Part shown: one piece after another, positions 18,140-39,574 of the stretch
How the letters are laid out: every line of letters begins with the position of its first letter
How positions within the stretch are numbered: position 1 is the first letter of the stretch
Origin: Clostridioides difficile
GTDB lineage: Bacteria; Bacillota; Clostridia; Peptostreptococcales; Peptostreptococcaceae
Direction: 5' to 3'
Assembly (NCBI RefSeq): GCF_900243075.1
Contig: NZ_OEZH01000040.1
Location: 1 to 51,879 of the forward strand
DNA length: 51,879 nt
Program-made: the position numbers and the translations under genes
Notes under the pieces: model-generated
Seen by the model: the letters and a program-made list of their open reading frames with translations, nothing else
Databases searched by the model: none
What the model was told of the DNA's origin: nothing

Positions 18140-18297
18140 TTTTGTCAACTCAAAATTACTGCTTCAATTAAACTTTTCAATTTTCTCAATAATTTTCTCA
18201 ATAAAAAAATACCATCATTTAGATATATAATTTTCTATAACAACTTTTCATTCAGTAGTTATTTATTAAAATCTAAACAATGATATATTTATTAATC

Positions 18298-19209
18298 TTA
18301 TTTATCCTTTTTAGCTCTACTTCTACTTTTCTTTACATTTGAACAATTTCTACAAGAAGGTGAACAGTATTGAGATTTAGAATTTGTAGGAATATAAATT
18401 TTACCACAGTACTTGCATTTATTTAAAGAAGAAGGTTCACTTGTAATTGCAAAGGCATAAATAGTCTCAATAGCTGTTTTCAAAGAATCAAACTCCCATG
18501 CAATAATTGGTTTATCCAGTTGACTTATAGAAAATCCTATCTTTTGGGGATTAAACCCTCCAGACATAATAGTAACACTTTCAGTTAATAGATTAGATGT
18601 ATTTTTATATACACAAATTTGATTAAAATGTTTACACATATCCTTAGCAAAGCTTACAATCCAGTCCAGTTGTTCAGTGTAGAACTTTGAAAATACTAAA
18701 TCTAAAATTAATGGTCTCTTTCCAAAAAACTTAGGAGATTCCTCTCTCTTTGATACATCTATACCTCTTCTATACTTTTTAAAATACACATCTTCATCAC
18801 TTGCAAATGGTATAAACATGTTTACATATTCATCAGTACTCAATATATTTTCTTTTGTAATATAATTCTTTTCAATCATCAGTACTCTTTCTTCTCCAAC
18901 TATATCTCTATTATATACACTTGAATATATTAAACCCAATAATCCATATTTTTTTACAAATTCAAGTACTTCTTTTTTTAATCTCATCTCTTTCGTCTCT
19001 TTTGGCATATCTTGTAGTGCCTCTTGTCCTATACGAATTATATCTACTATTATATCATCTGCTACATCAAACGGGTTGTACATGGTAAACACAGCATCTT
19101 CAGTTGGAACTATATATAATTCATTTTCTTCAGTAATTTTATATTCATAATCACTATACCTAATCCAATCACTTGCAAAATTCCCTATTAATTCTATTCT
19201 TTTATTCAT
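18298..19209 (-). CDS. Uncharacterised protein with C-terminal zinc ribbon
   Basis: A 303-residue soluble protein. The first 255 residues show no family I can name. The C-terminus (about 262-303) has CKYCGKIYIPTNSKSQYC followed by SPSC, giving a CxxC...CxxxC zinc-ribbon or treble-clef motif, and then a basic Lys/Arg tail. This layout recalls CGNR-type proteins and suggests nucleic acid binding. There is an AAAGGGGTG ribosome site before the ATG at 19209. It is probably transcribed alone, with about 270 bases to the next gene. Confidence 0.6.
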   Translation of the reverse strand: MNKRIELIGNFASDWIRYSDYEYKITEENELYIVPTEDAVFTMYNPFDVADDIIVDIIRIGQEALQDMPKETKEMRLKKEVLEFVKKYGLLGLIYSSVYNRDIVGEERVLMIEKNYITKENILSTDEYVNMFIPFASDEDVYFKKYRRGIDVSKREESPKFFGKRPLILDLVFSKFYTEQLDWIVSFAKDMCKHFNQICVYKNTSNLLTESVTIMSGGFNPQKIGFSISQLDKPIIAWEFDSLKTAIETIYAFAITSEPSSLNKCKYCGKIYIPTNSKSQYCSPSCRNCSNVKKSRSRAKKDK

Positions 19210-19507
19210 ATTGGTTATTCACCCCTTTCAATGTAATATATAATTTATATTTACTATTACATTTTTAGTTTATTCTATATTTTATATCCTGTCAACTATT
19301 CTTTTTATATTTCTATCATATCAAAATTTATAATTACCTTTATAACGGACTTATCAAGCTAAGTACCTTGTTTATTAATAACTAATTTATAATTAAATTT
19401 ATAAAAACTATTTACATATGAAATTAATCTCTTTATAATTTAATACGTAATATATTTTTATATTTACATATTACATATTAAAATTATAAAGAAAGGTATA
19501 TAAAATT

Positions 19508-19861
19508 ATGGATAGAAAACGTGAATTAAAACAATTATACAAAGAAATGAAATTTGACACAGGTGTATTTATAATAAAAAGTGATATTACTAAAAAGATT
19601 TACCTTGGAAAGAGTAATGACATAAAAAGCAAATTTAACTCCCTCAAATTCCAACTTGGTGCTGGTTCATGTATGATAAAAGAGTTAAATAATGATTGGA
19701 AAAAATACGGTGAAAAAGCATTTACGTTCGAAGTTTTAGAACTTATAAAGCATGATGACAACAAAACTGAGAAAGACTACTTAGAAGAGTTAGATATTTT
19801 AGAGATGGTTTGGTTAGAAAAGTTAAAAGAAGATAATACTTATGAAATTTATTCAATATAA
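19508..19861 (+). CDS. Degenerate GIY-YIG nuclease-fold protein
   Basis: A 117-residue protein. TGVFIIKS and KKIYLGKSND stand where a GIY-YIG domain has its GIY and YIG motifs, and LNNDWKKYGEKAFTFEVLEL matches the downstream conserved region. The usual catalytic Tyr of GIY is Phe and the Arg position appears to be Lys, so nuclease activity is doubtful. It resembles the small stand-alone GIY-YIG proteins of Firmicutes. It is alone on the plus strand, with an AAAGAAAGG site, and is followed by a MITE-like repeat that may act as its terminator. Confidence 0.65.
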   Translation: MDRKRELKQLYKEMKFDTGVFIIKSDITKKIYLGKSNDIKSKFNSLKFQLGAGSCMIKELNNDWKKYGEKAFTFEVLELIKHDDNKTEKDYLEELDILEMVWLEKLKEDNTYEIYSI

Positions 19862-19889: not shown

Positions 19890-20002
19890 GGTGTCTCAAA
19901 ATGAACTTTTTAGTTCATGAGGAACTCTTTTTTGTATGAAATCAAATATATTTTCATAATTTCAACAATGAAAAAGAGGCTTATCTATATTTTTAGACAG
20001 CC
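19890..20002 (+). repeat. MITE-like repeat, copy A
   Basis: About 113 bases with terminal inverted repeats (GTGTCTCAAAAT and ATTTTTAGACAGC). It has two internal hairpins: ATGAAC/GTTCAT near the left end and AAGAGGCT/AGCCTCTT near the right. The same element occurs at 39422-39532 and, inverted, at 48387-48505. No coding capacity. Confidence 0.8.
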
Positions 20003-20071
20003 TCTTCTCATACATTTTATACCATGATAAAATGAATAATCTACTAATCTTCAATGTATATATTCACTTTA

Positions 20072-24659: not shown

Positions 24660-25544
24660 TTAATCAACTATATTTTTTAAAACTCCTATTCCTTCGACTT
24701 TACATTCAACTATATCGCCATGTTTTAAATATACTTGAGGATTCATTCCCATAGCAACACCTGCTGGAGTTCCAGTTGAAATTATATCTCCTGGCTTTAG
24801 AGTCATCCCTCTTGATAAATCACTTATTACAGTAGGTATATCAAATATAAAGTATTCTGTATTAGAATTCTGTCTTACTTCTCCATTTACTACACTACTT
24901 ATATCTAATTTTAAAGGATGTTCAAATTCGTCTTTATGTACTATACAAGGTCCCATAGATGTATGTGTGTCTAAGCTTTTTCCTCTAAACCATTGAACAT
25001 GTTTATCTTGAAGTGCTCTTTCACTTATATCATTCACTATTGTATATCCAAATATATATTCATTAGCATCCTCTTTTGATATGTTTATACCTTCCTTACC
25101 TATAATTACTGCAAGTTCTGATTCATAATCCAACTTCTCTACCAAATCTCCATGTAAACTTATCTTATCATCTACTCCGATTATTTTGTCTGCTCTCTTA
25201 GAAAAATAAATTGGATAATCTGGCATAACTACATTTTTTATAACTCCATCTGGGATTTCATTGACATGGTCTTTATAGTTTAGACCTAAACATATAATAT
25301 CTTTTTTAGGTCTTACAATTGGGGAACATAATTTAACTTCTTCTAACTTATAACACTTTGCATTTTCAAATGAATTGTTTTTTATTTTTTCTAAATCTCC
25401 TGTAGATACATTTTCAATAAAATCATTCATATCTGTATATAATTTACTTAATCCCAAACTATTAATTTCATATATACTATTTGTTTCTGAGTTAAATACA
25501 CCTATATTTTCTTCATTGCCAGTACAGAAAGTTACAAATTTCAT
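24660..25544 (-). CDS. Fumarylacetoacetate-hydrolase-family protein
   Basis: A 294-residue enzyme of the FAH superfamily, which includes acylpyruvases and 2-keto-4-pentenoate hydratases. The metal site lies in KLDYESELAVIIGKEG, with YTIVNDISER and GDIISTGTPAGV as further signatures. An N-terminal lobe of about 75 residues precedes the core. I start at the ATG at 25544 behind GGAGG; the ATG 18 bases upstream overlaps that site. The natural substrate cannot be assigned. It may share a transcript with the AICAR formyltransferase gene downstream. Confidence 0.85.
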   Translation of the reverse strand: MKFVTFCTGNEENIGVFNSETNSIYEINSLGLSKLYTDMNDFIENVSTGDLEKIKNNSFENAKCYKLEEVKLCSPIVRPKKDIICLGLNYKDHVNEIPDGVIKNVVMPDYPIYFSKRADKIIGVDDKISLHGDLVEKLDYESELAVIIGKEGINISKEDANEYIFGYTIVNDISERALQDKHVQWFRGKSLDTHTSMGPCIVHKDEFEHPLKLDISSVVNGEVRQNSNTEYFIFDIPTVISDLSRGMTLKPGDIISTGTPAGVAMGMNPQVYLKHGDIVECKVEGIGVLKNIVD

Positions 25545-25773
25545 TTTTATTCCTCCATTCAATAAGTTGATTAATAATATTTTATTTTTATTAGTTTATA
25601 TAAATTGTAATAGATAATATTTATATGTCAATATATATTTGCAAATAGAGTTCTAAAAAGTGCAATAATTCATAAATATTAGAATTTATAAAAGATAGTC
25701 TACTTAATTGTGAATAGTTCTAATAAACTTTATTTATACAGATATACTCTTATAAAAGAAGATATAAAATTAC

Positions 25774-26286
25774 TTACATATAAACTTTCATTACATCTTC
25801 ACCAGCACGAATATTCCCTATTTTTAAAGTTTCAATTCTATCTATATCATAAGAATTTGTTATAACTACAGGAGTTATAATAGATTTAGCATTCTCTTTA
25901 ATTTTTTTCAAATCAAAATTTATAAGTTTTTGCCCACAAACAACTTTGTCTCCTTTATTTACTAATACTTCAAATCCCTCTCCATTCATATTTATAGTAT
26001 CTATTCCTATATGTATTAATATTTCCAATCCATATTCATCCTTTAAACATATAGCATGTTTAGATGGTAAAAATATTTGAATTATCTCTCCATCAACAGG
26101 GGAATAAACAACTCCTTCTTGTGGTTCTATAGCAATCCCATCACCTAATACTTTTTCAGCAAAAGCATCATCGGGAACATCGGCTATACTTAACACTTTT
26201 CCTGAAATTGGTGATTGTAATATTCCTTTTATATAATTATTTTTCACTTCTTCTTTTTTGTTTTTTGAGAATAATTTTTTTAACAT
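25774..26286 (-). CDS. PTS glucose-type EIIA (Crr-like), stand-alone
   Basis: A 170-residue cytoplasmic phosphocarrier of the EIIA-Glc family. LPSKHAICL holds His77 and ILIHIGIDT holds the phospho-accepting His92; SPVDGEI precedes them. It is the last gene of the sulfatase operon. The EIIBC permease of this locus (31673-33112) lacks its own EIIA domain, so this protein most likely supplies it. It follows the TSUP permease gene by 53 bases with an AAGGAG site. Confidence 0.92.
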   Translation of the reverse strand: MLKKLFSKNKKEEVKNNYIKGILQSPISGKVLSIADVPDDAFAEKVLGDGIAIEPQEGVVYSPVDGEIIQIFLPSKHAICLKDEYGLEILIHIGIDTINMNGEGFEVLVNKGDKVVCGQKLINFDLKKIKENAKSIITPVVITNSYDIDRIETLKIGNIRAGEDVMKVYM

Positions 26287-26339
26287 CTTAAATCTCCTTA
26301 TATTAATAATTTAAAATAAACATCCAATATCTATATGCT

Positions 26340-27122
26340 TTAGTTGATAAAGTACAGCACCTGAAATATGCTGTATATATTTATTCCAGTAATAACTATA
26401 GTCATATATGAAAACATATACTTAACTTTCCTATCATCCACCATTTTGCTGATAAAAGAACCCATAAATCCTCCCAAAACTGCTCCTATTATCATAAAAG
26501 GTAATCCAGATAAATCATATGCCCCAAATCCAGTATTTATCAAAACTGTCATTAACTTTGAAATATTAGAAAATAAAATAGTTATAATAGAATTAAAAGC
26601 AGCTTCTTTAGCTGATAATCCAAATAACAATGTGAACACAACCACATTTATAGGTCCTCCTCCTATTCCCAAAAATGAAGATATAACCCCTAAAAAAATA
26701 CCAATACTAAAATAAGTAATATTAGTATTGAATTTTATATTTAAACTTTTATCTCTATATAAATAAACCATTATTAACAAAATAGTCATTATAACATTTT
26801 GAATTACTTTTATTATAGATGGGCTATTTACATATGAAATTGATAAATCTAATAAACTTTGACCTATAATACCACCTAATATCGAAGCTCCACCAATTAA
26901 AATAAGTCTCAAACTTATTTTAAAAATTTTTAACTTAATTTGTTTATATGTAGAAACAACAGCCATTGATAATACAGTAAATGATGACAATATACTGATT
27001 GTAGCCACATCAAATACTCCAATCAAGTCTAATATTGGTTTTATTATTACACCTCCACCAATACCTGTTATTGCTCCTATAGTTGTTGCAAATATAGATA
27101 TTGCAAATAAAATTATATTCAT
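26340..27122 (-). CDS. TSUP-family (TauE/SafE) anion permease
   Basis: A 260-residue membrane protein with about eight hydrophobic segments and the internal duplication typical of TSUP proteins. GAITGIGGGVIIKP near the N-terminus and SFLGIGGGPINVV in the second half are the repeated family motif. Members move sulfite, sulfate or organosulfonates, often as exporters. Placed next to a sulfatase and its maturase, it probably removes sulfate or sulfite released in the cell. The direction of transport is an inference. Confidence 0.88.
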   Translation of the reverse strand: MNIILFAISIFATTIGAITGIGGGVIIKPILDLIGVFDVATISILSSFTVLSMAVVSTYKQIKLKIFKISLRLILIGGASILGGIIGQSLLDLSISYVNSPSIIKVIQNVIMTILLIMVYLYRDKSLNIKFNTNITYFSIGIFLGVISSFLGIGGGPINVVVFTLLFGLSAKEAAFNSIITILFSNISKLMTVLINTGFGAYDLSGLPFMIIGAVLGGFMGSFISKMVDDRKVKYMFSYMTIVITGINIYSIFQVLYFIN

Positions 27123-27213
27123 TAAAAATCATCCTAACTAAATTTATTATATTTTAAATCCTTTAATCGTACATAATTTTCAATAACTTAAGCTAGAATT
27201 CTCAACACTAAAA

Positions 27214-28335
27214 TTATTTAGGTATTTGATTTTTATATACTAACTCTGCTATTCTTTTTAAATCATTAAAGTTACACATTAGAAAATCTTTATATCCACA
27301 ATAATTACTATTAGAATCAATATACATAAAATTTTTCATTCTTTTACACCCACCACCGCATATTCTATAGAAATTACAATTTATACAAATACTTTCTTTT
27401 TGTATATTTTCATGTAAAAATTTATACACTGTAGACTTTCTCAAAATATTCAATAGAGTATTATCCTTTATATTACCTAAATTATAGTTATCTAGAACAT
27501 AAAAATCACATGGATATACACTTCCATCAGCCTCTATTACAAACTGTGGTTGACATTTTCCAATTATTCCACAGATACTTGGTATTCCTGTAATTAAGAG
27601 AGATATAATATTATCAAACAAATTAATACTTATGTAATTTCCATTATCCAGTTCATTTTTCCAAAGTTTAAATACTATTTTATAAAAATTTGCAAAATAT
27701 TTAGGTTCCAAAGAGTACTCTGATTTATCCTCACAATATAAATCATCTAAACAAGGAATAAACTGAATATATTTTATATCAATTTCTTTTATAACATTAA
27801 AAACTTTATTTGGATTACATGCAATCTGATTTGTCAAAACACATAATATGTTAAATTCTATTTTATGTTTTTCTAATAGTTTTTTTGTATTTATTACATC
27901 TTCATAGCTTCCCTTATTACTTAAATATACACGATTTTTGTCATGTATGTCTTTTAGCAAATCTAATGATAATCCTACTAAAAAATTGTTTTTCTTTAGA
28001 AATTCACACCATTCTTTATCTATAAGTGTTCCATTAGTTTGAATAGAGTAATTTACTATTATATTTTTTTTAGTTTTATTAACATATTTAATAAAATACT
28101 GATAAAATTTTACACCTGCCAAAGTAGGTTCTCCACCTTGAAAAGCAAACACAACTCTATCTCCACTATCCAAAACTTCAAATGTATTATCTATTATGTT
28201 TTTTATGGTATCTTCTTGCATAATACCATATGACTTAATTGCTCTTAAATTACTTATATTAGCATAAAAGCAATACCTACATCTTAAATTACATAATGAT
28301 GATACAGGTTTAATTAAAACTGATATACTTCTCAT
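27214..28335 (-). CDS. Anaerobic sulfatase-maturating enzyme (radical SAM, anSME)
   Basis: A 373-residue radical SAM enzyme that converts the active-site Cys of a sulfatase to formylglycine without oxygen. The N-terminal cluster motif has Cys15, Cys19 and Cys22 (CNLRCRYC). FQGGEPTLAG is the SAM-binding GGE motif and SIQTNGTL follows. The C-terminal SPASM region carries many Cys residues (CGIIGKCQ, YPCDF, CINCNFYRICGGGC, YCGYKDF) for two more clusters. The length matches known anSMEs. The target is almost certainly the Cys-type sulfatase encoded 27 bases upstream. Confidence 0.93.
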   Translation of the reverse strand: MRSISVLIKPVSSLCNLRCRYCFYANISNLRAIKSYGIMQEDTIKNIIDNTFEVLDSGDRVVFAFQGGEPTLAGVKFYQYFIKYVNKTKKNIIVNYSIQTNGTLIDKEWCEFLKKNNFLVGLSLDLLKDIHDKNRVYLSNKGSYEDVINTKKLLEKHKIEFNILCVLTNQIACNPNKVFNVIKEIDIKYIQFIPCLDDLYCEDKSEYSLEPKYFANFYKIVFKLWKNELDNGNYISINLFDNIISLLITGIPSICGIIGKCQPQFVIEADGSVYPCDFYVLDNYNLGNIKDNTLLNILRKSTVYKFLHENIQKESICINCNFYRICGGGCKRMKNFMYIDSNSNYCGYKDFLMCNFNDLKRIAELVYKNQIPK

Positions 28336-28362
28336 TATAAAAACCTTCTTTTTTAATATTTT

Positions 28363-29733
28363 TTACTTATCAGATAAAAGTCTATAATACTCATCTCTTC
28401 CTGGATAAGCTCTACCTTCTTCTATTTCTGTTTTCCATCTACTTGAACCTACTCCTTTTATAGGACCTTTTAAAAGGGGGTCTTTTGTTTCTAACATCCA
28501 ATTATCAACTTCCTTTCTCAATTCATTTGCTATATCTTGATAGTTTGAATCATTTATCACGTTATTTTCTTCTAATGGGTCTTTTATTAAATCATAAAGT
28601 TCTTCTTTTTCGTTAGGAACATAGAATTTATCTCTTACAGCTTTGCCAGATAAACTTAAATGTGAATCTACTGTAATGTATATTTTAGGTCCATCTTCAA
28701 AATTTCTAACATAACTATATTTATTAGTTCTTATACCTCTCATTGGTCTATACTGGTCATGCCATGTCATTTCTGTAAAGAATGAATCTCTTCCTATATC
28801 TTCATTTGTCTTTAATAATTTAACAAAACTTTCTCCATCTATATTCTTAGGGATTTCAGCTTCAATTAAGTCTAGTATGGTTGGAAGCAAATCAATATTA
28901 CATAATAACGCTTCTTTTTTTACGTTTTTCTGAGAAGAGTCAGGTAATACAATTATAAGTGCAGTCTCTAGTCCAGCTTCTTTTAACATGCCTTTAGCTC
29001 CTGGAAAAGCAACGCCATGGTCTGTTGTGAAGATAACAATTGTATTTTTGTCTAGTCCTGTTTCTTCTAATTTACTATATATTTTTCCTATTGCATCATC
29101 TAATACTTTTGCTGAACCATTGTATAAAGCTATATCTCTCCTTACATCTTCTGTATCGGGTAAATACTTGAATACCTCTACCTCATCTAATCTATCTGCA
29201 TATGGTTCATATTCATCAAAATCTCTATGAGTTTCAAAAAATCCTACATTTAGATAAAATGGTTTTTCTTGATTTTCCTTATACTCTTCCAAAAATTTAA
29301 TGACTTCTTTAGCAACTTTTGGAGCCCTATCTCCTGGTACAGATATGAAATTATCGTATCCTAAGTCATAAGTTGAAGAAAATACTCTATCTTCTATTGG
29401 TGGAGCTTCATTTATAGTTTCATGACTTAATCCTATTAATGTTGTCTCATATCCATTTTTTTGTAACTCCATAGGTAGTGTTGTATGTTTAGCATCTATA
29501 CAAAAACCTAGATGTGCAAGTCCAATTAATCCGTTATTATGAGGGTACAATCCAGTCAAAATACTTCCTCTACTAGGACTACACTGTGGAGCAGCACAAA
29601 AATAATTTTCAAATTGAATTCCTTTTTCAGCCAATTTGTTTATATAAGGAGTTTCTACATTATATCCATAACTATTGAATTTTCTTCCGCTATCATGAGA
29701 AATCATGAGTAAAATATTTGGTTTCATTAGCAT
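28363..29733 (-). CDS. Formylglycine-dependent sulfatase, N-sulfoglucosamine-sulfohydrolase-like
   Basis: A 456-residue type I sulfatase. The active-site signature is CSPSRGSILTG with Cys51 as the residue matured to formylglycine. The metal ligands are suggested by SHDSGRKF near the N-terminus and IVIFTTDHG. The region around the signature and the following YPHNNGLIGL resembles the sulfamidase (SGSH) branch of family S1. No signal peptide is present, so it acts in the cytoplasm on an imported substrate. The ATG at 29733 overlaps the stop of the upstream GH13 gene; a second ATG at 29727 has better ribosome-site spacing and may be the true start. Confidence 0.92.
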   Translation of the reverse strand: MLMKPNILLMISHDSGRKFNSYGYNVETPYINKLAEKGIQFENYFCAAPQCSPSRGSILTGLYPHNNGLIGLAHLGFCIDAKHTTLPMELQKNGYETTLIGLSHETINEAPPIEDRVFSSTYDLGYDNFISVPGDRAPKVAKEVIKFLEEYKENQEKPFYLNVGFFETHRDFDEYEPYADRLDEVEVFKYLPDTEDVRRDIALYNGSAKVLDDAIGKIYSKLEETGLDKNTIVIFTTDHGVAFPGAKGMLKEAGLETALIIVLPDSSQKNVKKEALLCNIDLLPTILDLIEAEIPKNIDGESFVKLLKTNEDIGRDSFFTEMTWHDQYRPMRGIRTNKYSYVRNFEDGPKIYITVDSHLSLSGKAVRDKFYVPNEKEELYDLIKDPLEENNVINDSNYQDIANELRKEVDNWMLETKDPLLKGPIKGVGSSRWKTEIEEGRAYPGRDEYYRLLSDK

Positions 29734-31403
29734 TACCTCTTTCTATTATTGTCTATTTCTTTACTATAAAATGATACTGTTTCGTAAGGCTTTAATCTTA
29801 GCTTAGGTTCTAAAGCTCTCTTTGTATAATTTCCTATTAAGTATTTAAATGGTTTTTCTAAAAATTCCTCGCTAATGTCTACTTCAACTTCATAATCATA
29901 GAAATTATTAAATACTATTAACTGTTCATTCTCTAAGCTTCTTACATAAGCATAAACCTTATCATTATCTAACAAAATCCCTTTATAACTACCATCAGAT
30001 ATAATATCCAACTCTTTTCTTAAAGATATTAAACTTTGATAGAAGTTAAAAATTGACCCTTCTTTAAGTTCTTTTTCAACATTTATTTCTTTATAATTTT
30101 CAGCTATTTTAATCCATGGTATACCATTTGTAAATCCAGAATTTAATTTACTTGACCATTGCATAGGAGTACGACTATTATCTCTAGACTTGGATTTTAC
30201 GATATTCATTATTTCTTCTTTTTCAACTTTATTTCTTAACAACTCATTGTATGCGTTATGAGTTTCAACGTCCAAATAGTCATTAATTTCTTCAAAACTT
30301 GGATTTATCATACCTATTTCTTCACCTTGATATATATATGGGGTTCCTCTTAGTAAGTGTATTGTAGCAGCCAACATTTTTGATGCTTCTATCCTATATT
30401 CTTCCTTACAAAATCTACTAACAGCTCTTGGTTGGTCATGATTATTCCAAAATAATGCATTCCATCCACCGCCTTTTTCTATTTCTTCTTGCCATTCATT
30501 TAAAATTTTTTTTAACATTATAAAATCGAAGGATTTATTACTCCATTTTTCTCCATCTTCATAGTCTACTTTTAAATGGTGAAAATTAAACGTCATCGAA
30601 AGCTCTTTTTCTTTCGGATTGGAATATAATATACAATTTTCAATAGTTGTTGAAGACATTTCTCCAACAGTTGTTATATCTTCAAACCTTCCAAAAGTTT
30701 CTTTGTTCATTTCTTTAATAAACTCATGAACTATAGGCTTGTCTGTATACATTTCTTTGCCTATATTATTTGTAGAGTCCTTCAGGTCTTTGTCTTTACC
30801 AATCACGTTTATTACATCAAATCTAAAGCCTTTGACCCCTTTCTCCAACCAAAAATTTATAACTTTATATAGTTCTTCTCTGACTTTAGGATTACGCCAA
30901 TTTAGGTCAGCTTGTGTAATATCATATAAGTGTAAGTAATATTTATCTGTATTTCCAAACTTATCCCAAGCACTTCCTCCAAACTTAGATTTCCAATTTG
31001 TTGGAGGTTGATTATCTTCTTTTCCGTTTCTGATAAAATAGAAATCTTGATATTTTTTATCTCCAGCTAAAGCTTTTTTAAACCATTTATGTTCTGTTGA
31101 TGTGTGATTTAAGACCATATCTAGCATTAATTCTATATTGTATCTTTTAGCCTCAATCACTAATAGCTCAAAGTCTTCCATTGTCCCAAACATAGGGTCT
31201 ATTGATGTATAATCAGCAATATCGTATCCATTATCCTTTTGCGGTGACAAAAAAAATGGGTTAATCCAAATTATATCCACCCCTAATTTATATAAATAAG
31301 GTAACTTTTCTATAATTCCTTTTAAATCTCCTATTCCATCATTATTAGAATCATTAAATGACTTTGGATATATCTGATAAATAACTTTTTTCTTTAAATC
31401 CAT
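29733..31403 (-). CDS. GH13 alpha-glucosidase, phosphotrehalase-like (TreA-type)
   Basis: A 556-residue cytoplasmic GH13 enzyme of the TreA/oligo-1,6-glucosidase branch. The nucleophile is Asp196 in GFRFDVINV, the acid/base is Glu248 in TVGEMSS, and the third acid is Asp323 in WNNHDQPR; QADLNWRNP and MVLNHTS are further signatures. Next to a TreB-like PTS and a TreR-like repressor it probably hydrolyses trehalose-6-phosphate or a related phosphorylated disaccharide. I start at the ATG at 31403 behind GGAGG; the ATG at 31430 lies in the operator. It is the first gene of a five-gene operon with the sulfatase genes. Confidence 0.9.
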   Translation of the reverse strand: MDLKKKVIYQIYPKSFNDSNNDGIGDLKGIIEKLPYLYKLGVDIIWINPFFLSPQKDNGYDIADYTSIDPMFGTMEDFELLVIEAKRYNIELMLDMVLNHTSTEHKWFKKALAGDKKYQDFYFIRNGKEDNQPPTNWKSKFGGSAWDKFGNTDKYYLHLYDITQADLNWRNPKVREELYKVINFWLEKGVKGFRFDVINVIGKDKDLKDSTNNIGKEMYTDKPIVHEFIKEMNKETFGRFEDITTVGEMSSTTIENCILYSNPKEKELSMTFNFHHLKVDYEDGEKWSNKSFDFIMLKKILNEWQEEIEKGGGWNALFWNNHDQPRAVSRFCKEEYRIEASKMLAATIHLLRGTPYIYQGEEIGMINPSFEEINDYLDVETHNAYNELLRNKVEKEEIMNIVKSKSRDNSRTPMQWSSKLNSGFTNGIPWIKIAENYKEINVEKELKEGSIFNFYQSLISLRKELDIISDGSYKGILLDNDKVYAYVRSLENEQLIVFNNFYDYEVEVDISEEFLEKPFKYLIGNYTKRALEPKLRLKPYETVSFYSKEIDNNRKR

Positions 31404-31418
31404 GTTTAAACCTCCAAA

Positions 31419-31430
31419 TTGTCTAGACAA
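31419..31430. promoter_or_regulatory. TreR-like operator in the treA-like promoter region
   Basis: The perfect 12-base palindrome TTGTCTAGACAA lies just before the ribosome site of the GH13 gene. It fits the TTGTATATACAA-type operator of TreR regulators. A related copy sits ahead of the divergent PTS gene. Confidence 0.75.
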
Positions 31431-31593
31431 ATTTTATATATTTATGATAAACCTTTTTGTTATCAAAATCAATATTTAGTCCAAATAAAAAATATAATTT
31501 CCATACTTTTTTCTTAATTCTATGCTATATCTAATCTCTAAAATCCAGCTAATTTATTTTTTGAAACTAATATTAAAAAAATTTAGGATAACG

Positions 31594-31645
31594 TTGACAT
31601 AGAAATTTGTCTGTGGTATATTAATTTCAAGATTTGTCTATACAA
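31594..31645 (+). promoter_or_regulatory. Promoter and TreR-like operator of the trehalose-type PTS gene
   Basis: TTGACA (31594-31599), a 17-base spacer and TATATT (31617-31622) form a near-consensus promoter. The palindrome-like TTGTCTATACAA at 31634-31645 lies just after the expected transcription start. A half-site TTGTCTG lies in the spacer. A repressor bound here would block transcription directly. Confidence 0.8.
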
Positions 31646-31672
31646 CATTATATTTTAGGAGGAGGTAATTTT

Positions 31673-33112
31673 ATGAGTACGCAAAAAGATAATACACACC
31701 ATAAAGAGCAGGTTGAACAAATTCTTGAAGCAATTGGTGGAATAGACAATATAATATCTGCAACACACTGTATTACTAGATTAAGATTTGCTCTACATTC
31801 AGAAAGTAAAGTTAATATAAAACAGTTGGAGCAAATAGACATAGTAAAGGGCAGTTTTACTTCAAATGGCCAATTTCAAGTTATTATAGGTCCAGGGCTT
31901 GTAAATAAAATTTATTCTATATTGTTAGAAATTACTGGACTTAAAGAAGCAACAAAGGCCGAGGTTAAAGAGATTTCTTCTAAAAAATTAAATCCTCTTC
32001 AAAAAGCTATAAAGGTATTAGCAGATATATTCATTCCTATACTACCAGCTATCGTTGCCTCTGGTTTATTAATGGGTATAAACAATCTACTTGCAAATCC
32101 AGGAATTTTCTATGAACAACCTTTTTTAGAGGTTCATAGCAACTGGGCTGGTATATCTAATATGATTAATCTTATTGCAAATACTTCATTTGCATTCTTA
32201 CCAGCACTAATAGGTTGGTCGGCTGTCAAGAAGTTTGGAGGAAATCCTGTACTTGGTATTGTATTAGGTCTTATTTTAATTAATCCAGATTTAATGCCTG
32301 GTGCACAGTACTCTAAAACTCCTGAAGCTGTTACTTACTGGAACATATTAGGCTTTAATATTGCTAAAATAGGTTATCAAGGACAAGTAATCCCTGTTCT
32401 ATGCTCTTCTTATCTTTTAGCAACAATCGAAAAGTTTCTTACTAAAAAAATTCCTGAGATGATTCAACTTATTTTTGTTGCTCCTCTTACATTATTGATA
32501 ACAGGTTTTCTAACTTTTTCTGTTATAGGACCTATAACAATGTCATTTGCTAACTTAATCACAAATGGAATCCTTGGATTATTTGAAATTAATGCAATAC
32601 TTGCAGGTGCATTGTTTGGATTTATATTATCTCCATTAGTTATAACAGGAATGCATCACTTATTCTTAGGTATAAACTTACAAATGATAGGTACTTTAGG
32701 ATTTGCAACATTATGGCCAATACAAGTTATGGCTAGTCTTGGGCAAGGTGCAGCAGCTTTAACTATGTTTTTCATATTAAAAAACAAGAAAATCAAAGGA
32801 GTTGCATTAACAGCTGCAATTTCAGCTTGGCTAGGTATTACTGAACCAGCAATATTTGGTATAAACTTACGTTATCGTTTTCCTTTTATGGCCTCTATGA
32901 TAGGTGCAGGTATCGCTGGAGGAGTTGTATCTTACTTTAATGTTAAAGCGGGTTCTATAGGAATATCCGGTATTCCAGCATTCTTATCTATATTTACAGA
33001 ACAATGGGGTGTTTATTTCTTGGCAATGGGTCTTTCTATAACGATTACTTGTATACTTACATACCTATTCTCAAAGAGTAAATATTTTAATAAAGAATTT
33101 ATAGAAAATTAA
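31673..33112 (+). CDS. PTS EIIBC, trehalose/sucrose type (TreB-like)
   Basis: A 479-residue sugar permease. The N-terminal EIIB domain (about 10-90) has the phosphorylated Cys33 in ATHCITRLRF. The EIIC domain follows (about 105-475) with about ten membrane segments, including MHHLFLGINLQMIG and GITEPAIFGINLRYRFP. There is no EIIA domain, so it needs the free EIIA at 25774-26286 or another one. I start at the ATG at 31673 behind GGAGGAGG; the in-frame TTG at 31634 is part of the operator. It is divergent from the sulfatase operon and convergent with the regulator. Confidence 0.92.
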   Translation: MSTQKDNTHHKEQVEQILEAIGGIDNIISATHCITRLRFALHSESKVNIKQLEQIDIVKGSFTSNGQFQVIIGPGLVNKIYSILLEITGLKEATKAEVKEISSKKLNPLQKAIKVLADIFIPILPAIVASGLLMGINNLLANPGIFYEQPFLEVHSNWAGISNMINLIANTSFAFLPALIGWSAVKKFGGNPVLGIVLGLILINPDLMPGAQYSKTPEAVTYWNILGFNIAKIGYQGQVIPVLCSSYLLATIEKFLTKKIPEMIQLIFVAPLTLLITGFLTFSVIGPITMSFANLITNGILGLFEINAILAGALFGFILSPLVITGMHHLFLGINLQMIGTLGFATLWPIQVMASLGQGAAALTMFFILKNKKIKGVALTAAISAWLGITEPAIFGINLRYRFPFMASMIGAGIAGGVVSYFNVKAGSIGISGIPAFLSIFTEQWGVYFLAMGLSITITCILTYLFSKSKYFNKEFIEN

Positions 33113-33130
33113 AGAAACACATAAATCAAC

Positions 33131-33183
33131 TGTACTGCACTCCAATTTTTGAACCAAAAATCTAACGATTGGAATGCAGTACA
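33131..33183. terminator. Long hairpin between the convergent PTS and regulator genes
   Basis: TGTACTGCACTCCAAT (33131-33146) pairs with ATTGGAATGCAGTACA (33168-33183), with one mismatch. It lies between two convergent genes and most likely stops transcription from both sides. A T-run follows on the plus strand at about 33194-33200. Confidence 0.75.
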
Positions 33184-33203
33184 TTAGACGCTCTTTTTTA
33201 GTA

Positions 33204-33917
33204 CTAAAGATTTCTTCGTCTTGCAAAATCCACAAATCTAAATGTGTCAACTCTATGTCTGGATTCATGATACTGAAATAACCTTGTATCTTCTAAATAT
33301 ACTTCACTTCTTATCACTACAACATGTGTATCTGTTCTAATATCTAGCAACAGCTTATCCTCTTCTGTAACAGGATTTACTGTTACCTCTCTATTTGCAT
33401 AACCTATTTTTAATTCTAGATTTTTCTCTATATAATTAAATATTGAACTTTGAACTGCCCTTAATGGTATTTCTGGTATTATTTCAAATATAAAATAATC
33501 TTTATCTAAAATAACAGCTTCTCCATTAATTTTTCTAAGTCTTTCAACTGATATGACCTTAGTTTTTGTATCTATATCTAACTTCTTACAAATTTCTAAA
33601 GGCATAATCTCTTTTTTATTTTTGAGTACATTTATTTCCGTATCTAAGTTTTTATTTCTTTGTAACTCGTCGAAACTAATTAGCCCTGCTCCTTCTATCT
33701 CAAACTTATTTATATCTAAAACAATAGCACCTTTACCCTGTTTTTTTTGTATAAAGCCCTTCTCTAATAAAAGAGCCTGTGCTTTTCTAATAGTTTCTCT
33801 TGATACTTGATATTTTTGAGCAAGTTTTACTTCCGTTGGCAGAAGTTCTCCTATTTCATACACATTATTTCTTATGTCTTTTTCTAAATCTAAATATATT
33901 TCATAAAATTTTTTCAA
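33204..33917 (-). CDS. GntR-family (HutC/TreR-type) repressor
   Basis: A 238-residue repressor with an N-terminal winged helix-turn-helix (LLPTEVKLAQKYQVSRETIR, followed by GFIQKKQGKGAIV) and a C-terminal UTRA ligand domain. The C-terminal ESRHRVDTFRFVDFARR closely follows Bacillus TreR. It should bind the TTGTCT(A/T)(G/A)ACAA-type sites near both divergent promoters and be released by a phosphorylated sugar, trehalose-6-phosphate in TreR. I start at TTG 33917, five bases after GAGAGTGA. It would be a second TreR beside the one expected at the core tre locus. Confidence 0.88.
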   Translation of the reverse strand: MKKFYEIYLDLEKDIRNNVYEIGELLPTEVKLAQKYQVSRETIRKAQALLLEKGFIQKKQGKGAIVLDINKFEIEGAGLISFDELQRNKNLDTEINVLKNKKEIMPLEICKKLDIDTKTKVISVERLRKINGEAVILDKDYFIFEIIPEIPLRAVQSSIFNYIEKNLELKIGYANREVTVNPVTEEDKLLLDIRTDTHVVVIRSEVYLEDTRLFQYHESRHRVDTFRFVDFARRRNL

Positions 33918-34132
33918 GTAAATCACTCTCATTCATAATTAATATTCATACTTATCCCATTTTATATAAATATCATATTATAGACTAAACTGTCAAATAT
34001 TATTAAATTTAAAAAAATCAATTCAACAATATAATTAATTATTTACTATGCAATACCTCCAAACAGCTAACAATTATTGTTGGTCTCCATACAACAAATG
34101 AAGAAGAGTACCTAACAGAGATTTAGATACCT

Positions 34133-35323
34133 CTATTGAATATTCTTAAATGATTTTGCTTTTTTGAATGTCCATATTCCCAGTAATAACAAAGCAATAC
34201 TAGGTAATATAAATGGGAAATCCAAGTTAATACTACTTAATGGTGCGAATATCATCATCCCTAATGGCGTTGCTAATGTGCTAAATAAATCAACATAAGA
34301 AAACATTCTCCCTATATAAGTAGGGTCACTATATTCTTGTACCATGGTAATAATTGGTGTGTAATACAATGGACTTCCAATCCCCATAATGAGCATAAAT
34401 AATGCGAATAACCAAATTGAGTTTGCATAAATTAGTAACCCCATTGATAACCCAAAAATACAAATGGAATAGCCCACGAGTTTCATATGTGAAATGGTTA
34501 TTTTTTTATACCCTAAATAAAGACTTCCTAGCAAGGCTCCAATTGAAAATGCCATTTCGACACACGTCAAAATCCAGACATTATCATCCAAGCGAGTAGA
34601 AGCTAATAATGGTGTTAATTGTGACGCTGGAACAACAAGGATATTGAATAGTGTATAAAGGCTTATGATAGTTCTAAGTTTAGTTGATTTTGTTAAGTAT
34701 TGAACCCCTTGTTTAAGCTCTAACCATCCATTTTCAGAAGAGTGTCTTTCTTTGTTTTTGATTGGGATAATTAGTAGCAGTAAAATACCAATAACAGCAG
34801 TGATAACATCTATCATTAAAACAACGCTAAGAGAGAAAAAACTCAATGCAATACCAGCAAGTGCAGGTGAAATAAGTTGAATAATACTCCAAGTGGTTGT
34901 TGAGTAACTATTTGCCCTCATTAATTCTTCTTGTGGAATAAATGAGGGCAAGATGCTTTTTGTTGCTGGCATTTGGATACCACTTCCAATAGAACGCAGA
35001 CTATTAAAAACATATATCCATAGAATAGAGTTGTTTCCACTTGCATAAATAACAGCTAAACACAATGTAGAAAGAGCAATGAAGCTATCAGAAAGCATAA
35101 TAATCTTCTTCAAAGGGAAGCGGTCAGCAATTACTCCACCCACAAGCATAATAAGTGCCTGTGGTAGAAAAGTCGTAATTGTAATACCCGTAATTGCTAT
35201 ACCTGAATTTGTTTGTAGAGTTACATACCAGATTAGCGATAAAGAGACAATAGAAGACCCTAGCATGGAAACAGTTTGACTAGTCATAAAAATAAGTAAC
35301 TTTCTTTGCCAACTTAATTTCAT
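34133..35323 (-). CDS. MFS efflux transporter (MefA/macrolide-efflux-like)
   Basis: A 396-residue major facilitator protein with about 12 membrane segments. ADRFPLKKIIMLSD is the loop 2-3 motif of the family and IGSGIQMPATKSILP fits the MefA-like drug-efflux branch. Base composition by eye is somewhat more GC-rich (about 33-37% in sampled lines) than the neighbours (about 28%), which hints at transfer. The ribosome site is GGGAGG. It stands alone and is followed by mobile-element debris upstream. The drug specificity cannot be assigned. Confidence 0.85.
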   Translation of the reverse strand: MKLSWQRKLLIFMTSQTVSMLGSSIVSLSLIWYVTLQTNSGIAITGITITTFLPQALIMLVGGVIADRFPLKKIIMLSDSFIALSTLCLAVIYASGNNSILWIYVFNSLRSIGSGIQMPATKSILPSFIPQEELMRANSYSTTTWSIIQLISPALAGIALSFFSLSVVLMIDVITAVIGILLLLIIPIKNKERHSSENGWLELKQGVQYLTKSTKLRTIISLYTLFNILVVPASQLTPLLASTRLDDNVWILTCVEMAFSIGALLGSLYLGYKKITISHMKLVGYSICIFGLSMGLLIYANSIWLFALFMLIMGIGSPLYYTPIITMVQEYSDPTYIGRMFSYVDLFSTLATPLGMMIFAPLSSINLDFPFILPSIALLLLGIWTFKKAKSFKNIQ

Positions 35324-35371
35324 AAATACCTCCCAGTAATTCTTTTTAAATTTTCTTTTATTTGTATTTCA

Positions 35372-35613
35372 TCAAAAATATTTGTATAAGTAGCTATGGA
35401 AGATTGTATAGATTTCTCGACAGATAATTATTCCACTATTTATTCCAGCCCCAAGTCCAACATCAATAATTTAATCTGCTGAAAGCCATGAATTACTAAA
35501 ATTTGAACACATGAAACAAGCTTTGGAATACCAATTGGTAAACTCGCATAATCCATAAAAAATTCTTTTGGCTCAGTAATAACACTCTGTTTCAAAAAAT
35601 TAATTTCTTGCAT
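35372..35613 (-). pseudogene. Broken small reading frame upstream of the MFS gene
   Basis: A well-placed ATG at 35613 follows a GGAGATG site and opens a frame beginning MQEINFLKQSVITEPKEFF. After about 43 codons the likely continuation (NSWLSAD, a stop, then IIDVGLGAGINSGI and EIYTIFHSYLYKYF) lies in another frame. So at least one frameshift and one in-frame stop have accumulated. I do not recognise the family. The remnant belongs with the other decayed material in this region. Confidence 0.55.
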
Positions 35614-35704
35614 ATAAATCATCTCCTGTCATAATCATGTTAGGTCATGACACAGTGTTAGGTGCAAGATGAAATTTTAAAATAAAATACATATAATAAA
35701 AGAA

Positions 35705-35736
35705 CCAATAACAAAGTCTTTATTCCTTGTTATTGG
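35705..35736. terminator. Hairpin between two pseudogenes
   Basis: CCAATAACAA (35705-35714) pairs with TTGTTATTGG (35727-35736). On the minus strand it is followed by TTCTTTTATT. It may be the old terminator of the adhesin-like remnant. Confidence 0.6.
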
Positions 35737-35739
35737 CTG

Positions 35740-36327
35740 CTACTTTTTTAAAGAGGTACATAGTCGATGAATTATTCTATAATCTTCCAAATTGTCTTGT
35801 TTTTCCAAGAGCAATTCATATTGTGAAATTTGTGTTGTTTTTATTTGCTGTTATAAATATTCCACACCAACAATTGCCGTAGTTTGATTATATTCTTGCA
35901 GATAGATTGGCTTCACTAGCTTTACAATCTGATGTCCTATACTGAATGTAATCGTTGATGTATCGTTTAGAAGCTTGTAAGAATTAATATTCTGTTGACT
36001 CAAAGCCCTGACTTTGTTTCCATAATATTCAAAGCGTAGTTTGACATTTGATAATGGTTTATCAGTATCTTCATTAATCTTCTGGACTTTCACATTTCCT
36101 AATTTGATGATGTTGACTTTAAAGCTCGTTTGTTTAGAGCTTTCTAAGTGAAATTCCAACATAGCTTGCTCATTTAATTTTTTATAAGCAATCTAAGCAC
36201 CTACTTCATTTTATGGAACTTTATGATAAGTAACATTTCCATTATTGGAGTTAGCACTTGGTGTAATCGTAATAATGTTACCCTCTTGTTTTAAATTGGC
36301 GTTTGTTAAGTTGGATTTTAACATCAT
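35740..36327 (-). pseudogene. Decayed surface-protein fragment with a SpaA/Cna-B-like domain
   Basis: One reading frame runs from an ATG at about 36327 to a stop at 35740 but is broken by three in-frame stops: a TAA and a TAG at about 36210-36190 and a TAA at 35851. The open middle part (35851-36162) contains GNVKVQKINEDTDKPLSNVK, the start of a prealbumin-like (SpaA/Cna-B) isopeptide repeat found in adhesins of Tn916/Tn1549-like elements. All three stops could come from CAA or CAG by one C-to-T change. There is no signal peptide and no sorting signal, so this is a remnant. Confidence 0.65.
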
Positions 36328-36337
36328 ATTGATTAAT

Positions 36338-36370
36338 CAAAAAAAGACGCTCATTTTTTATGAACGCCTT
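36338..36370 (-). terminator. Terminator of the CPBP protease gene
   Basis: On the minus strand GGCGTTCAT pairs with ATGAGCGTC (two wobble pairs) and is followed by a run of seven T. It lies about 40 bases after the CPBP stop codon and marks the right border of the accessory region. Confidence 0.8.
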
Positions 36371-36410
36371 CCTGTAAATTATCAGCTATATATACAAATA
36401 TTTTTATTAT

Positions 36411-37097
36411 CTACCTAATAAATATAGCAAATAAGCTCCTCAATAGTATACAAAGCCCTACATCTCTAAACCTTGATTTAACTAATCCAAGCACAATACC
36501 AAAAACAGTACCTATCATAACTTTTGAAATAATAACTTCAAAGGTGTAGCTTGAATTGTTATACAATATTATGTAATTTCTTATAACATCTATATATCCT
36601 ATATTATAAATTCCAGATAATATAGATGTTATACAGATAATTTTACTCTTTGACTTTATAAAATTACTTAGATAGTTCCATATATATTCTCTAAAAAATA
36701 ACTCTTCAAATATTGGAACTATCAATACAGACAAAGTCATCATAGTTACATTAAAAAATATATATCCCTTAGTGCAATAAGTTGCAATTATTGCTAAAGA
36801 TAAGACCACTATAAAAAGTATCAGCTTACACTTTTCAATAAGTATATTGTTTTTATTTTCTTCAAAAGCCTCTGTGATTTTTCTATTTCTCACCTTGTTA
36901 TACAAAGAATTATCTTTTAAAAATAAAATTAATGATAAACCAACTAATGTAAAAGAAATTAAGTTTATAATATTAAAATTTTCAAGAGTAAATTCAAATT
37001 GACTTAGAAGTACATAATTCAAAATCATCCTTAATATTTGAACTATAAACATCAATAAAATAGAATCTATTATACATTTTTTATAACTATACTTCAT
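36411..37097 (-). CDS. CPBP-family intramembrane metalloprotease
   Basis: A 228-residue membrane protein with about seven hydrophobic segments. FEELFFREYIWNYL gives the EExxxR motif of CPBP (Abi/Rce1-like) glutamic proteases. Later segments include ISGIYNIGYID, in the place of the second motif, though a clear conserved His there is not obvious. Such proteins process prenylated or bacteriocin-like substrates or act in immunity. The start at 37097 has no strong ribosome site. It follows the small helix-turn-helix gene by 27 bases and may be cotranscribed. Confidence 0.75.
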   Translation of the reverse strand: MKYSYKKCIIDSILLMFIVQILRMILNYVLLSQFEFTLENFNIINLISFTLVGLSLILFLKDNSLYNKVRNRKITEAFEENKNNILIEKCKLILFIVVLSLAIIATYCTKGYIFFNVTMMTLSVLIVPIFEELFFREYIWNYLSNFIKSKSKIICITSILSGIYNIGYIDVIRNYIILYNNSSYTFEVIISKVMIGTVFGIVLGLVKSRFRDVGLCILLRSLFAIFIR

Positions 37098-37124
37098 CCC
37101 AATTTAAATCACCCCATGTATATA

Positions 37125-37436
37125 CTAATCGTAAAGACCATTTAATACTCTACTTACAGTTGCTTTGCTCCAATTTGTTTGATTTGAAATTTCTTTATAA
37201 CTTAAGCCATCTCTTCTTAAACTCTTTATATTATTTATATCATCATCAGTAATTTGTTTTTCTTTTGGCTTAAGACTATTTTTATAGCTTCTTAGTCTAT
37301 CCAATTCTGATTTCAAACTATCTACTTCAAACTGTTTTTTTTGAAGTTTACTCTCATAAGAATCTCTCATTTCATTAAACTCTTTAATGTAGTTTACTTT
37401 CCAGTCCTCATCCATTTTTGTTTTAAATATACCCAT
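37125..37436 (-). CDS. Small helix-turn-helix protein with N-terminal coiled coil
   Basis: A 103-residue protein. Residues about 15-55 form a heptad-like charged coil (YESKLQKKQFEVDSLKSELD). The C-terminal ITDDDINNIKSLRRDGLSYK and ISNQTNWSKATVSRVLNGL form a resolvase/Hin-type helix-turn-helix. It is probably a dimeric DNA-binding regulator. There is an AAGGAGG site before the ATG. The CPBP protease gene directly downstream may be its partner or target. Confidence 0.75.
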   Translation of the reverse strand: MGIFKTKMDEDWKVNYIKEFNEMRDSYESKLQKKQFEVDSLKSELDRLRSYKNSLKPKEKQITDDDINNIKSLRRDGLSYKEISNQTNWSKATVSRVLNGLYD

Positions 37437-39358: not shown

Positions 39359-39421
39359 AAAAACAATAAATTTATTTAATCTTTCTTTGTCTATTAATCA
39401 ATTAATTTTAAAATTAAAATG

Positions 39422-39532
39422 GGTATCCCAAAATGAACTTTTTCGTTTATGAGGAACTCTCTTTTGTATAAAATAAATACATTTTTATCATTTCAACAAT
39501 GAAAAAAGGCTTATCTCTATTTTGAGACAGCC
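39422..39532 (+). repeat. MITE-like repeat, copy B
   Basis: Same element as 19890-20002, with a degraded left end (GGTATCCCAAAAT) and an intact right end (ATTTTGAGACAG). It lies between the icd stop and the MarR operators, so its right-hand hairpin may help end icd transcription. Confidence 0.8.
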
Positions 39533-39574
39533 TCTTTCTTTTAATCTATATTCTACTTTTTCCATAAATAAAAT

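What the first reader, a model, noticed from the sequence alone, without database searches (positions are those of the whole stretch)
25774..33917. Candidate pathway for a sulfated alpha-glucoside (sulfo-trehalose-like sugar)
A TreR-like repressor, TreB-like EIIBC without EIIA, phosphotrehalase-like GH13, cytoplasmic formylglycine sulfatase, its anaerobic maturase, a TSUP anion permease and a free EIIA sit in one locus under shared operators. Every step of using a sulfated disaccharide is present: PTS import and phosphorylation, desulfation, hydrolysis, and sulfate/sulfite export. Sulfated trehaloses exist in mycobacterial sulfolipid and in haloalkaliphilic archaea. The C. difficile trehalose island described from ribotype 078 (treA2, ptsT, treX, treR2) resembles part of this locus, but here a sulfatase module is fused to it and no TreX is visible. 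I do not know of a described sulfo-trehalose pathway.
Basis: inference. Interest (0 to 1): 0.85.

Follow-up and report, generated by a model that had tools for sequence, protein, structure and literature searches.

The report
Likely sulfated-trehalose use gene cassette
A set of neighbouring genes in a Clostridioides bacterium looks built to take up a sulfate-tagged form of the sugar trehalose, cut the sulfate off inside the cell and eat the sugar, a food route for which our searches found no published description.

Summary
In detail: the seven genes lie where stated, as a probable operon treA-sulfatase-anSME-TSUP-EIIA, divergent treB, and treR. Two conserved TreR-like operators flank the treA-treB promoter region. 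The cassette is an island absent from congener G004.

The interpretation gains independent support. The sulfatase sits in a supported clade of 20 Bacillota proteins. All 20 lie beside a sugar-uptake module: 7 a TreB-type trehalose PTS, 2 a glucose-type PTS, 11 an ABC importer with GH65 phosphorylase; a maturase gene lies near 19 of 20. More distant relatives (37-43%) lie within 11 kb of a TreT homologue in four haloarchaeal plasmids and, in Tsukamurella, 4.5 kb from Stf0, the trehalose-2-sulfotransferase.

Best reading: uptake, desulfation and cleavage of trehalose 2-sulfate. Against: ordinary tre cassettes lack the sulfatase (TreB in 155 of 398 Bacilli genomes, sulfatase in 6, none shared); the pocket lacks the usual GKxH lysine; no biochemistry exists. 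That the substrate is a sulfated glucose or glucoside is better supported than trehalose 2-sulfate itself.

The parts
25774..26286 (-). free glucose-family EIIA, last gene of the probable operon
   Evidence: PF00358 170.5 bits, TIGR00830 over cut-off; truncated in CD160
26340..27122 (-). TSUP/TauE-SafE anion permease, proposed sulfate (or sulfite) exporter
   Evidence: PF01925 103.3 bits; TSUP also near the sulfatase in G355, G1333 and G971
27214..28335 (-). anaerobic sulfatase-maturating-like radical SAM/SPASM enzyme
   Evidence: best models NF010321 and TIGR03942, both under cut-off
28363..29733 (-). cytoplasmic formylglycine sulfatase, C51-S-P-S-R; proposed trehalose-2-sulfate (6-phosphate) sulfatase
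   Evidence: PF00884 and SGSH_C; motif alignment; tree
29733..31403 (-). treA, GH13 phosphotrehalase (ORF opens at TTG 31430; likely start ATG 31403)
   Evidence: TIGR02403 847.6 bits over cut-off 799.05; start and overlap
31419..31430 (.). TreR-like operator TTGTCTAGACAA in the leader of treA
   Evidence: present in 5 of 5 loci compared, with one base changed in G010
31594..31622 (+). promoter-like site of treB, TTGACA-17-TATATT with TG
   Evidence: 11 of 12 matches, one of two best in the scan; the scan as a whole finds no more sites than shuffles; the region is largely conserved in 5 loci
31634..31645 (.). TreR-like operator TTGTCTATACAA just downstream of the treB promoter-like site
   Evidence: invariant in 5 of 5 loci compared
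31673..33112 (+). treB, EIIBC of trehalose type without EIIA
   Evidence: NF008236 over cut-off; likely start ATG 31673
33204..33932 (-). treR, GntR/UTRA repressor
   Evidence: TIGR02404 281.9 bits over cut-off
25641..36401 (.). island: stretch absent from congener G004, approximate borders; includes a 2.3-kb part (34044-36402) found only in the window
   Evidence: G004 aligns to window 25356-25640 and 36402-37291 with 126 unaligned bases between

Best explanation
The cassette is a TreR-controlled route for a sulfated trehalose, most likely trehalose 2-sulfate. TreB with the free EIIA (or another EIIA) imports and 6-phosphorylates it. The formylglycine sulfatase, activated by its own anaerobic maturase, removes the sulfate in the cytoplasm. 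TreA splits the resulting trehalose 6-phosphate into glucose and glucose 6-phosphate. The TSUP permease exports the released sulfate. TreR releases the two operators when a phosphorylated trehalose accumulates. Shown by sequence: gene identities, operon-like layout, operators, island nature, and linkage of the sulfatase clade to sugar and alpha-glucoside uptake. Inferred: substrate, position of the sulfate, order of steps, export, regulation.
For: Gene identities. Clade of 20 Bacillota sulfatases, support 100/100: 7 beside TreB, 2 beside glucose-type PTS IICB with EIIA, 11 beside sugar ABC plus GH65; maturase gene near 19 of 20, missing only in G1199. Five sulfatases with a C-x-P-S/A-R motif from three of the same Bacilli genomes but outside the clade: 0 of 5 near TreB, TreA or GH65. 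The TreB of E. ureasiticus beside the sulfatase is 69% identical to the window's, whereas the best of the TreBs from 155 other Bacilli genomes is 57%. G1199 has an over-cut-off trehalose IIBC (619.8 vs 591.95) directly before the sulfatase. The GH65-ABC-bPGM set resembles the published trehalose/kojibiose phosphorylase region of Thermoanaerobacter kivui (PMC9834392, passages). TreT homologue (Natrialba copy: PDB 2x6q, E 2.9e-95) within 2.3-10.4 kb of the sulfatase in 4 haloarchaeal plasmids; N. magadii is reported to contain 2-sulfotrehalose (PMC3403918 passages; solute described in PMC1224877 passages). Tsukamurella: FGE, cysN/C, cysD and Stf0 (PDB 1tex, E 9.5e-94) beside the sulfatase. It is the only Stf0 relative in 72,556 plasmid records at E 1e-30; Stf0 makes trehalose-2-sulfate (PMC10638397, passages).
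Against: No biochemistry. TreB relatives are common without the sulfatase (155 vs 6 of 398 Bacilli genomes, none shared; only the best 3-4 candidates per genome were scored there). Two of 20 clade members use a glucose-type PTS without TreA or GH65 nearby (one has a GH94-type gene some 6 kb away), so a sulfated glucose is possible. GH65 in the halophiles is closest to maltose and kojibiose phosphorylases of known structure, so specificity for trehalose is not shown. Controls are few (5), and 3 of 5 also have a sugar ABC permease match (one weak) and 2 of 5 an FGE, so sugar import beside a sulfatase is not special in itself. The sulfatase lacks the usual GKxH lysine and has HD for DD. Only 4 of 15 haloarchaeal plasmid records with the sulfatase have TreT close by, all Natrialbaceae, so probably one event; a fifth record (Halomontanus) holds both genes far apart. 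The TreT homologue is under the curated cut-off of the Thermococcales TreT model (374 vs 775 bits). The Tsukamurella case is one record at 37% identity. The eight MAG relatives examined (Zipacnadia, Armatimonadetes, Lentisphaerae, WS1) show none of the markers in the stretches held. TreB is split in G009 and EIIA truncated in CD160, so the pathway may be decaying in some lineages.
Confidence: 0.6

Rival explanations
1. The cassette serves a different sulfated alpha-glucoside or a sulfated glucose (for example sulfated kojibiose, isomaltose-type sugars or glucose 2- or 6-sulfate); TreB and TreA have shifted specificity.
For: Glucose-type IICB (TIGR02002 601.6 vs 591.8 bits) beside the sulfatase in G355 and the same layout in G1333; kojibiose-phosphorylase-like GH65 in the halophile loci; the cassette TreA is only 49-56% identical to the other phosphotrehalases of the genus.
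Against: TreR, TreA and TreB score as trehalose proteins; a TreB-type PTS is the partner in three lineages; Stf0 and TreT are neighbours of distant relatives.
Confidence: 0.22
2. It is a sulfamidase-like enzyme for N- or O-sulfated glucosamine disaccharides from host glycosaminoglycans that happens to use a TreB-type importer.
For: Foldseek best match is human sulfamidase 4miv (E 9.4e-28, TM 0.68); SGSH_C domain.
Against: About 24% identity only; relatives live in Bacilli and haloarchaea from saline habitats as well; the best sequence match in the PDB is an S1_8A sulfatase described as lambda-carrageenan specific, so fold kinship does not fix the substrate; neighbours are alpha-glucoside genes.
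Confidence: 0.08
3. An ordinary trehalose operon into which an unrelated sulfatase module (for sulfur scavenging) was inserted; the two parts share only a promoter.
For: TreA and sulfatase modules are separable: G010 lacks treA exactly between operator and sulfatase; ordinary tre cassettes have no sulfatase.
Against: The sulfatase, not treA, is the constant partner of this TreB; sugar uptake genes accompany 20 of 20 clade members with different importers.
Confidence: 0.1

Closest known systems
tre operon of Bacillus subtilis type (treP/treB, treA, treR; general knowledge)
   Same: TreR, operator similar to TTGTATATACAA (consensus recalled), IIBC, phosphotrehalase by NCBIfam models
   Different: treB divergent, treR convergent with treB, and a sulfatase, maturase, TSUP and free EIIA behind treA
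C. difficile treA2-ptsT-treX-treR2 cluster (PMC10569727, passages)
   Same: TreA 56% and TreB 60% identical to a cluster of that gene content in congener G010, locus L082; I assigned L082 by gene content, no M120 sequence was compared
   Different: no treX-like gene, a different repressor, plus the sulfatase module; G010 carries both clusters at different places
Choline-O-sulfate use by choline sulfatase in a bet operon (only a reference title seen; rest recalled)
   Same: a sulfated small solute is taken up and desulfated in the cytoplasm
   Different: substrate a sulfated sugar; PTS or ABC import with GH13 or GH65 cleavage
Trehalose/kojibiose phosphorylase region of Thermoanaerobacter kivui (PMC9834392, passages)
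   Same: GH65, sugar ABC importer and beta-phosphoglucomutase as in the halophile-type relatives
   Different: no sulfatase or formylglycine-generating enzyme is mentioned in the passages seen
S1_8 sulfatases and human sulfamidase (PDB 9bb9, 4mhx)
   Same: fold and closest solved relatives
   Different: about 24% identity; HD instead of DD, no GKxH lysine; no export signal seen

Membership tests
S1 formylglycine sulfatases | sulfatase fold (PF00884) with C-x-P/A-S-R formylglycine motif | tested here: met
   PF00884 150.1 bits, C51SPSR
S1 formylglycine sulfatases | maturing enzyme available | tested here: met
   anSME-like gene 27 bases downstream, under model cut-offs; maturase gene near 19 of 20 clade members
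S1 formylglycine sulfatases | full classical pocket: two acidic metal ligands at the DD motif and lysine of GKxH (recalled as common, not as the defining mark) | tested here: not met
   H13-D14 and G101-L-S-H104; 0 of 43 family rows have the lysine. Hence activity is not taken as proven
S1_8 / sulfamidase subfamily | close sequence relation to characterised S1_8 or SGSH | tested here: inconclusive
   nearest solved structures, but about 24% identity; SulfAtlas models were not available
trehalose PTS utilisation cassette | phosphotrehalase, trehalose IIBC and TreR by curated models | tested here: met
   TreB is over one of two trehalose models
trehalose PTS utilisation cassette | uses trehalose or a derivative | not testable with these tools
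   needs growth or enzyme assays
C. difficile tre2 cluster (treA2-ptsT-treX-treR2) | treX present with the other three genes | tested here: not met
   no treX-like gene among the cassette ORFs; a TreX-like gene is in L082 of G010
trehalose-2-sulfate catabolic pathway (proposed) | sulfatase acts on trehalose 2-sulfate | not testable with these tools
   genomic linkage only

The most novel reading that the evidence does not exclude
A dedicated family of intracellular trehalose-2-sulfate sulfatases, marked by H at the first metal position, CxP[SA]R and [WFY]H..Y.P.R..RT, exists in Bacillota, haloarchaea and actinobacteria. It links producers of sulfated trehalose (haloarchaeal osmolyte, Stf0-bearing actinobacteria) with consumers that take it up by PTS or ABC importers and cleave it by GH13 or GH65: a catabolic route for sulfotrehalose not described in the papers searched.
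Probability: 0.5. Interest if true: 0.85.

Novelty: new variant of a known kind. Interest (0 to 1): 0.75.

Why it matters
Sulfated trehalose is a major solute of some haloalkaliphilic archaea (PMC1224877, passages) and the core of mycobacterial sulfolipids (PMC13141999, passages), yet my searches (open-licence papers only) turned up no description of how it is broken down. If the reading is right, a sulfatase family with a recognisable signature becomes a marker for use and recycling of sulfated trehalose in salt lakes, soil and the gut, and Clostridioides trehalose biology gains a branch present in only part of the genus (5 of 8 genomes).

Tried and rejected
PDB sequence and fold searches gave only distant kin of the sulfatase. 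The AlphaFold model (mean pLDDT 70.4, active-site loops under 50) is too weak for reading substrate contacts, so no pocket argument is made. Independent recruitment of TreB in G1199 looked likely on the TreB tree; one clade of all sulfatase-linked TreBs is only weakly rejected (p-AU 0.03), and with the tre2 TreB inside it is not rejected (0.38), so it is left open. That E. ureasiticus holds a housekeeping phosphotrehalase could not be shown: of five GH13 matches two were tested and stay under the TIGR02403 cut-off (659 and 666 vs 799 bits, queries cut at their ends). Rfam gave no match at gathering threshold in the window. Of 16 control stretches fetched 11 were dropped because no C-x-P/A-S/A-R sulfatase was found at the site, leaving 5 controls from three genomes (G355, G1053, G1333). 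The sulfatase tree holds 13 of the 18 plasmid records (five were not fetched); L015, L017_b, L055_c and L055_e were dropped, and L019, L078 and L115 not entered (fragment, or the same genome as another row). L080 was left out of the TreB tree because its TreB is broken. CD160 is counted once (L007; L078 is the same genome).
Full report
WHAT IS THERE. The window lies in a genome of 4.22 Mb in 187 contigs. I take it for a Clostridioides because a near-identical locus is in the record of C. difficile CD160. The cassette runs treR(-), treB(+), then divergently treA, sulfatase, anSME, TSUP and EIIA, all on the minus strand. TreR and TreA exceed their trehalose equivalog cut-offs. TreB exceeds one trehalose IIBC model and falls short of another. 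The maturase is closest to anaerobic sulfatase maturases but under both cut-offs. The treA stop codon and the sulfatase start overlap by one base, and the following gaps are 27, 91 and 53 bases. Two palindromes, TTGTCTAGACAA in the treA leader and TTGTCTATACAA after the treB promoter-like site, are the only matches of TTGT[AC]TA[TG]ACAA in 52 kb. Each of four related loci also has exactly two, at the corresponding places. E. ureasiticus has TTGTATATACAA before treB. A strong promoter-like site, TTGACA-17-TATATT, lies before treB, although the scan as a whole finds no more sites than shuffles do.

AN ISLAND. Of 8 Clostridioides genomes searched, 5 hold the sulfatase; of the other 63 genomes of the family none does at E 1e-30 (5 of 71 in all). 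In congener G004 the flanking genes sit next to each other: window positions 25640 and 36402 are 126 unaligned bases apart there; G005 and G008, which also lack the sulfatase, were not examined. G010 has the cassette without treA, missing exactly between the operator and the sulfatase. In CD160 the EIIA is truncated, and in G009 treB is split by a frameshift. The window genome and G010 also hold a second phosphotrehalase-like GH13 of canonical type elsewhere (49-50% identity); G006, G007 and G009 show only the cassette one at E 1e-60. So the cassette treA may also serve plain trehalose.

THE SULFATASE CLADE. Whole-genome searches with the sulfatase: family 5 of 71, Enterococcaceae 1 of 105, Bacilli sample 6 of 398, class sample around the window 3 of 391, family of G503 8 of 261, family of G355 5 of 159. 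Thresholds were 1e-30, 1e-80 or 1e-90 as printed there, and the samples overlap. A maximum-likelihood tree of 48 sulfatases places 20 Bacillota proteins in one clade (support 100/100). I counted the neighbours of each in the 17-20 kb held around it: TreB in 7 (5 Clostridioides, E. ureasiticus, G1199); glucose-type IICB with EIIA, FGE and TSUP in 2 (G355, G1333); sugar ABC importer with GH65 in 11, of which 10 also show beta-phosphoglucomutase (the L105 stretch ends early). A maturase (anSME, FGE, or both in E. ureasiticus) lies near 19 of 20, TSUP near 8 of 20, TreA near 4 of 20. Five sulfatases from three of the same Bacilli genomes but outside the clade have none of TreB, TreA or GH65 nearby; 3 of these 5 have a sugar ABC permease match (one weak) and 2 an FGE, so sugar uptake beside a sulfatase is not in itself special, while alpha-glucoside genes are. 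The E. ureasiticus TreB is 69% identical to the window's; the best TreB in 155 other Bacilli genomes is 57%.

LINKS TO TREHALOSE OUTSIDE BACILLOTA. A protein search of 72,556 plasmid records gave 18 records at E 1e-60: 15 haloarchaeal, one each of Streptomyces, Tsukamurella and Deinococcus. In Natrialba magadii, Halopiger xanaduensis, Natronosalvus rutilus and Natronococcus sp. AD-5 a TreT homologue lies 7.4, 2.3, 5.1 and 10.4 kb from the sulfatase; in Halomontanus rarus both are on one replicon but far apart. The Natrialba homologue matches solved TreT structures at E 2.9e-95 but is under the curated cut-off of the Thermococcales TreT model. N. magadii is reported to contain 2-sulfotrehalose (PMC3403918, passages), a major solute of several Natronococcus and Natronobacterium species (PMC1224877, passages). 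In Tsukamurella tyrosinosolvens the neighbours are an FGE, cysN/C, cysD and Stf0; the last is a close relative of 1tex. Stf0 makes trehalose-2-sulfate (PMC10638397, passages). That Stf0 is the only one found in the collection at E 1e-30; a rough estimate that it would fall by chance within 5 kb of one of 19 sulfatase places is 3e-5 (uniform placement assumed). All 43 family rows of the tree set have H at the first metal position and [WFY]H..Y.P.R..RT near the C-terminus and none has the GKxH lysine; the 5 other sulfatases in the set have neither of the first two, and 3 of these 5 have the lysine.

HOW IT PROBABLY WORKS. Trehalose 2-sulfate enters through TreB and becomes a 6-phosphate; the sulfatase, matured by anSME under anoxia, frees sulfate; TreA splits trehalose 6-phosphate; TSUP exports sulfate; TreR senses the phosphorylated sugar. 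The halophile version replaces PTS and GH13 by ABC import, GH65 phosphorolysis and beta-phosphoglucomutase, a set published for trehalose and kojibiose in Thermoanaerobacter kivui (PMC9834392, passages). Where treA is missing (G010, E. ureasiticus, G1199) another enzyme must cleave the sugar; G010 has two other phosphotrehalase-like genes, for the other two this was not settled. Substrate, order and export are inference.

AGAINST. TreB relatives occur in 155 of 398 Bacilli genomes at E 1e-120 and the sulfatase in 6 of 398 at E 1e-80, with no genome in both lists (apparently the same sample, judging by the handles). So this is not a general feature of tre operons. The glucose-type PTS in two loci and the kojibiose-like GH65 leave room for other sulfated glucosides. 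The eight MAG relatives examined (L010-L014, L016-L018) show none of the markers used. G641 has an anSME and a mannose-class PTS beside a sulfatase at 39% identity (PTS class read from the sequence, not from a model). The structure model is weak.

PRIOR WORK. C. difficile trehalose papers (22 papers hold the terms, 20 listed; of these only PMC10569727 opened, passages) describe treA, treR, treA2, ptsT, treX and treR2; the word sulfatase does not occur in PMC10569727. Searches for sulfotrehalose (58 papers, 30 listed), for sulfated trehalose with sulfatase (none), for three of six related terms (7 papers) and for sulfatase-maturating with phosphotransferase system and trehalose (1 paper, not opened) brought up no degradation pathway in the titles and abstract starts listed. 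In the passages seen of PMC3403918, PMC12555021, PMC12029414, PMC2412884 and PMC13141999 sulfatase and sulfotrehalose are not tied together. Two relevant works were seen only as reference titles: Mougous 2002 on mycobacterial sulfotransferases and sulfatases and Youssef 2014 on 2-sulfotrehalose biosynthesis. Subscription journals are mostly not held, so an existing description cannot be excluded.

Noticed in passing
window 34044-36402: About 2.3 kb with an MFS exporter-like gene (34133-35323) and a small ORF of no Pfam family (35851-36162); absent from all four related Clostridioides loci compared, which have about 200 bases there.
   Followed up: partly
window 39401-39560, 19890-20006, 48382-48510: A dispersed repeat of about 80-160 bases, 3 copies in the window and more in the 400 kb of congener G004 searched; in CD160 one copy lies between treB and treR. 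No Rfam match at gathering threshold.
   Followed up: partly
L114 (G641) 331-6336: A distant relative of the sulfatase with its own anSME, GntR regulator and what reads as a mannose-class PTS: possibly a sister pathway for another sulfated sugar.
   Followed up: no
L073 (G355) 13022-19735: Second sulfatase-like gene, beta-glucoside-type PTS IIABC and a SOGP/GH94-type phosphorylase next to the main cassette.
   Followed up: no
L008 10386-12443: E. ureasiticus carries both an anaerobic-type maturase and an FGE-like one beside one sulfatase, as a facultative anaerobe might need.
   Followed up: partly
L082 (G010) 5389-11283: A cluster with the gene content of the published tre2 island (treA2, ptsT, treX-like MGH1/trehalase-fold gene, treR2) in a genome that also has the sulfatase cassette.
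   Followed up: partly
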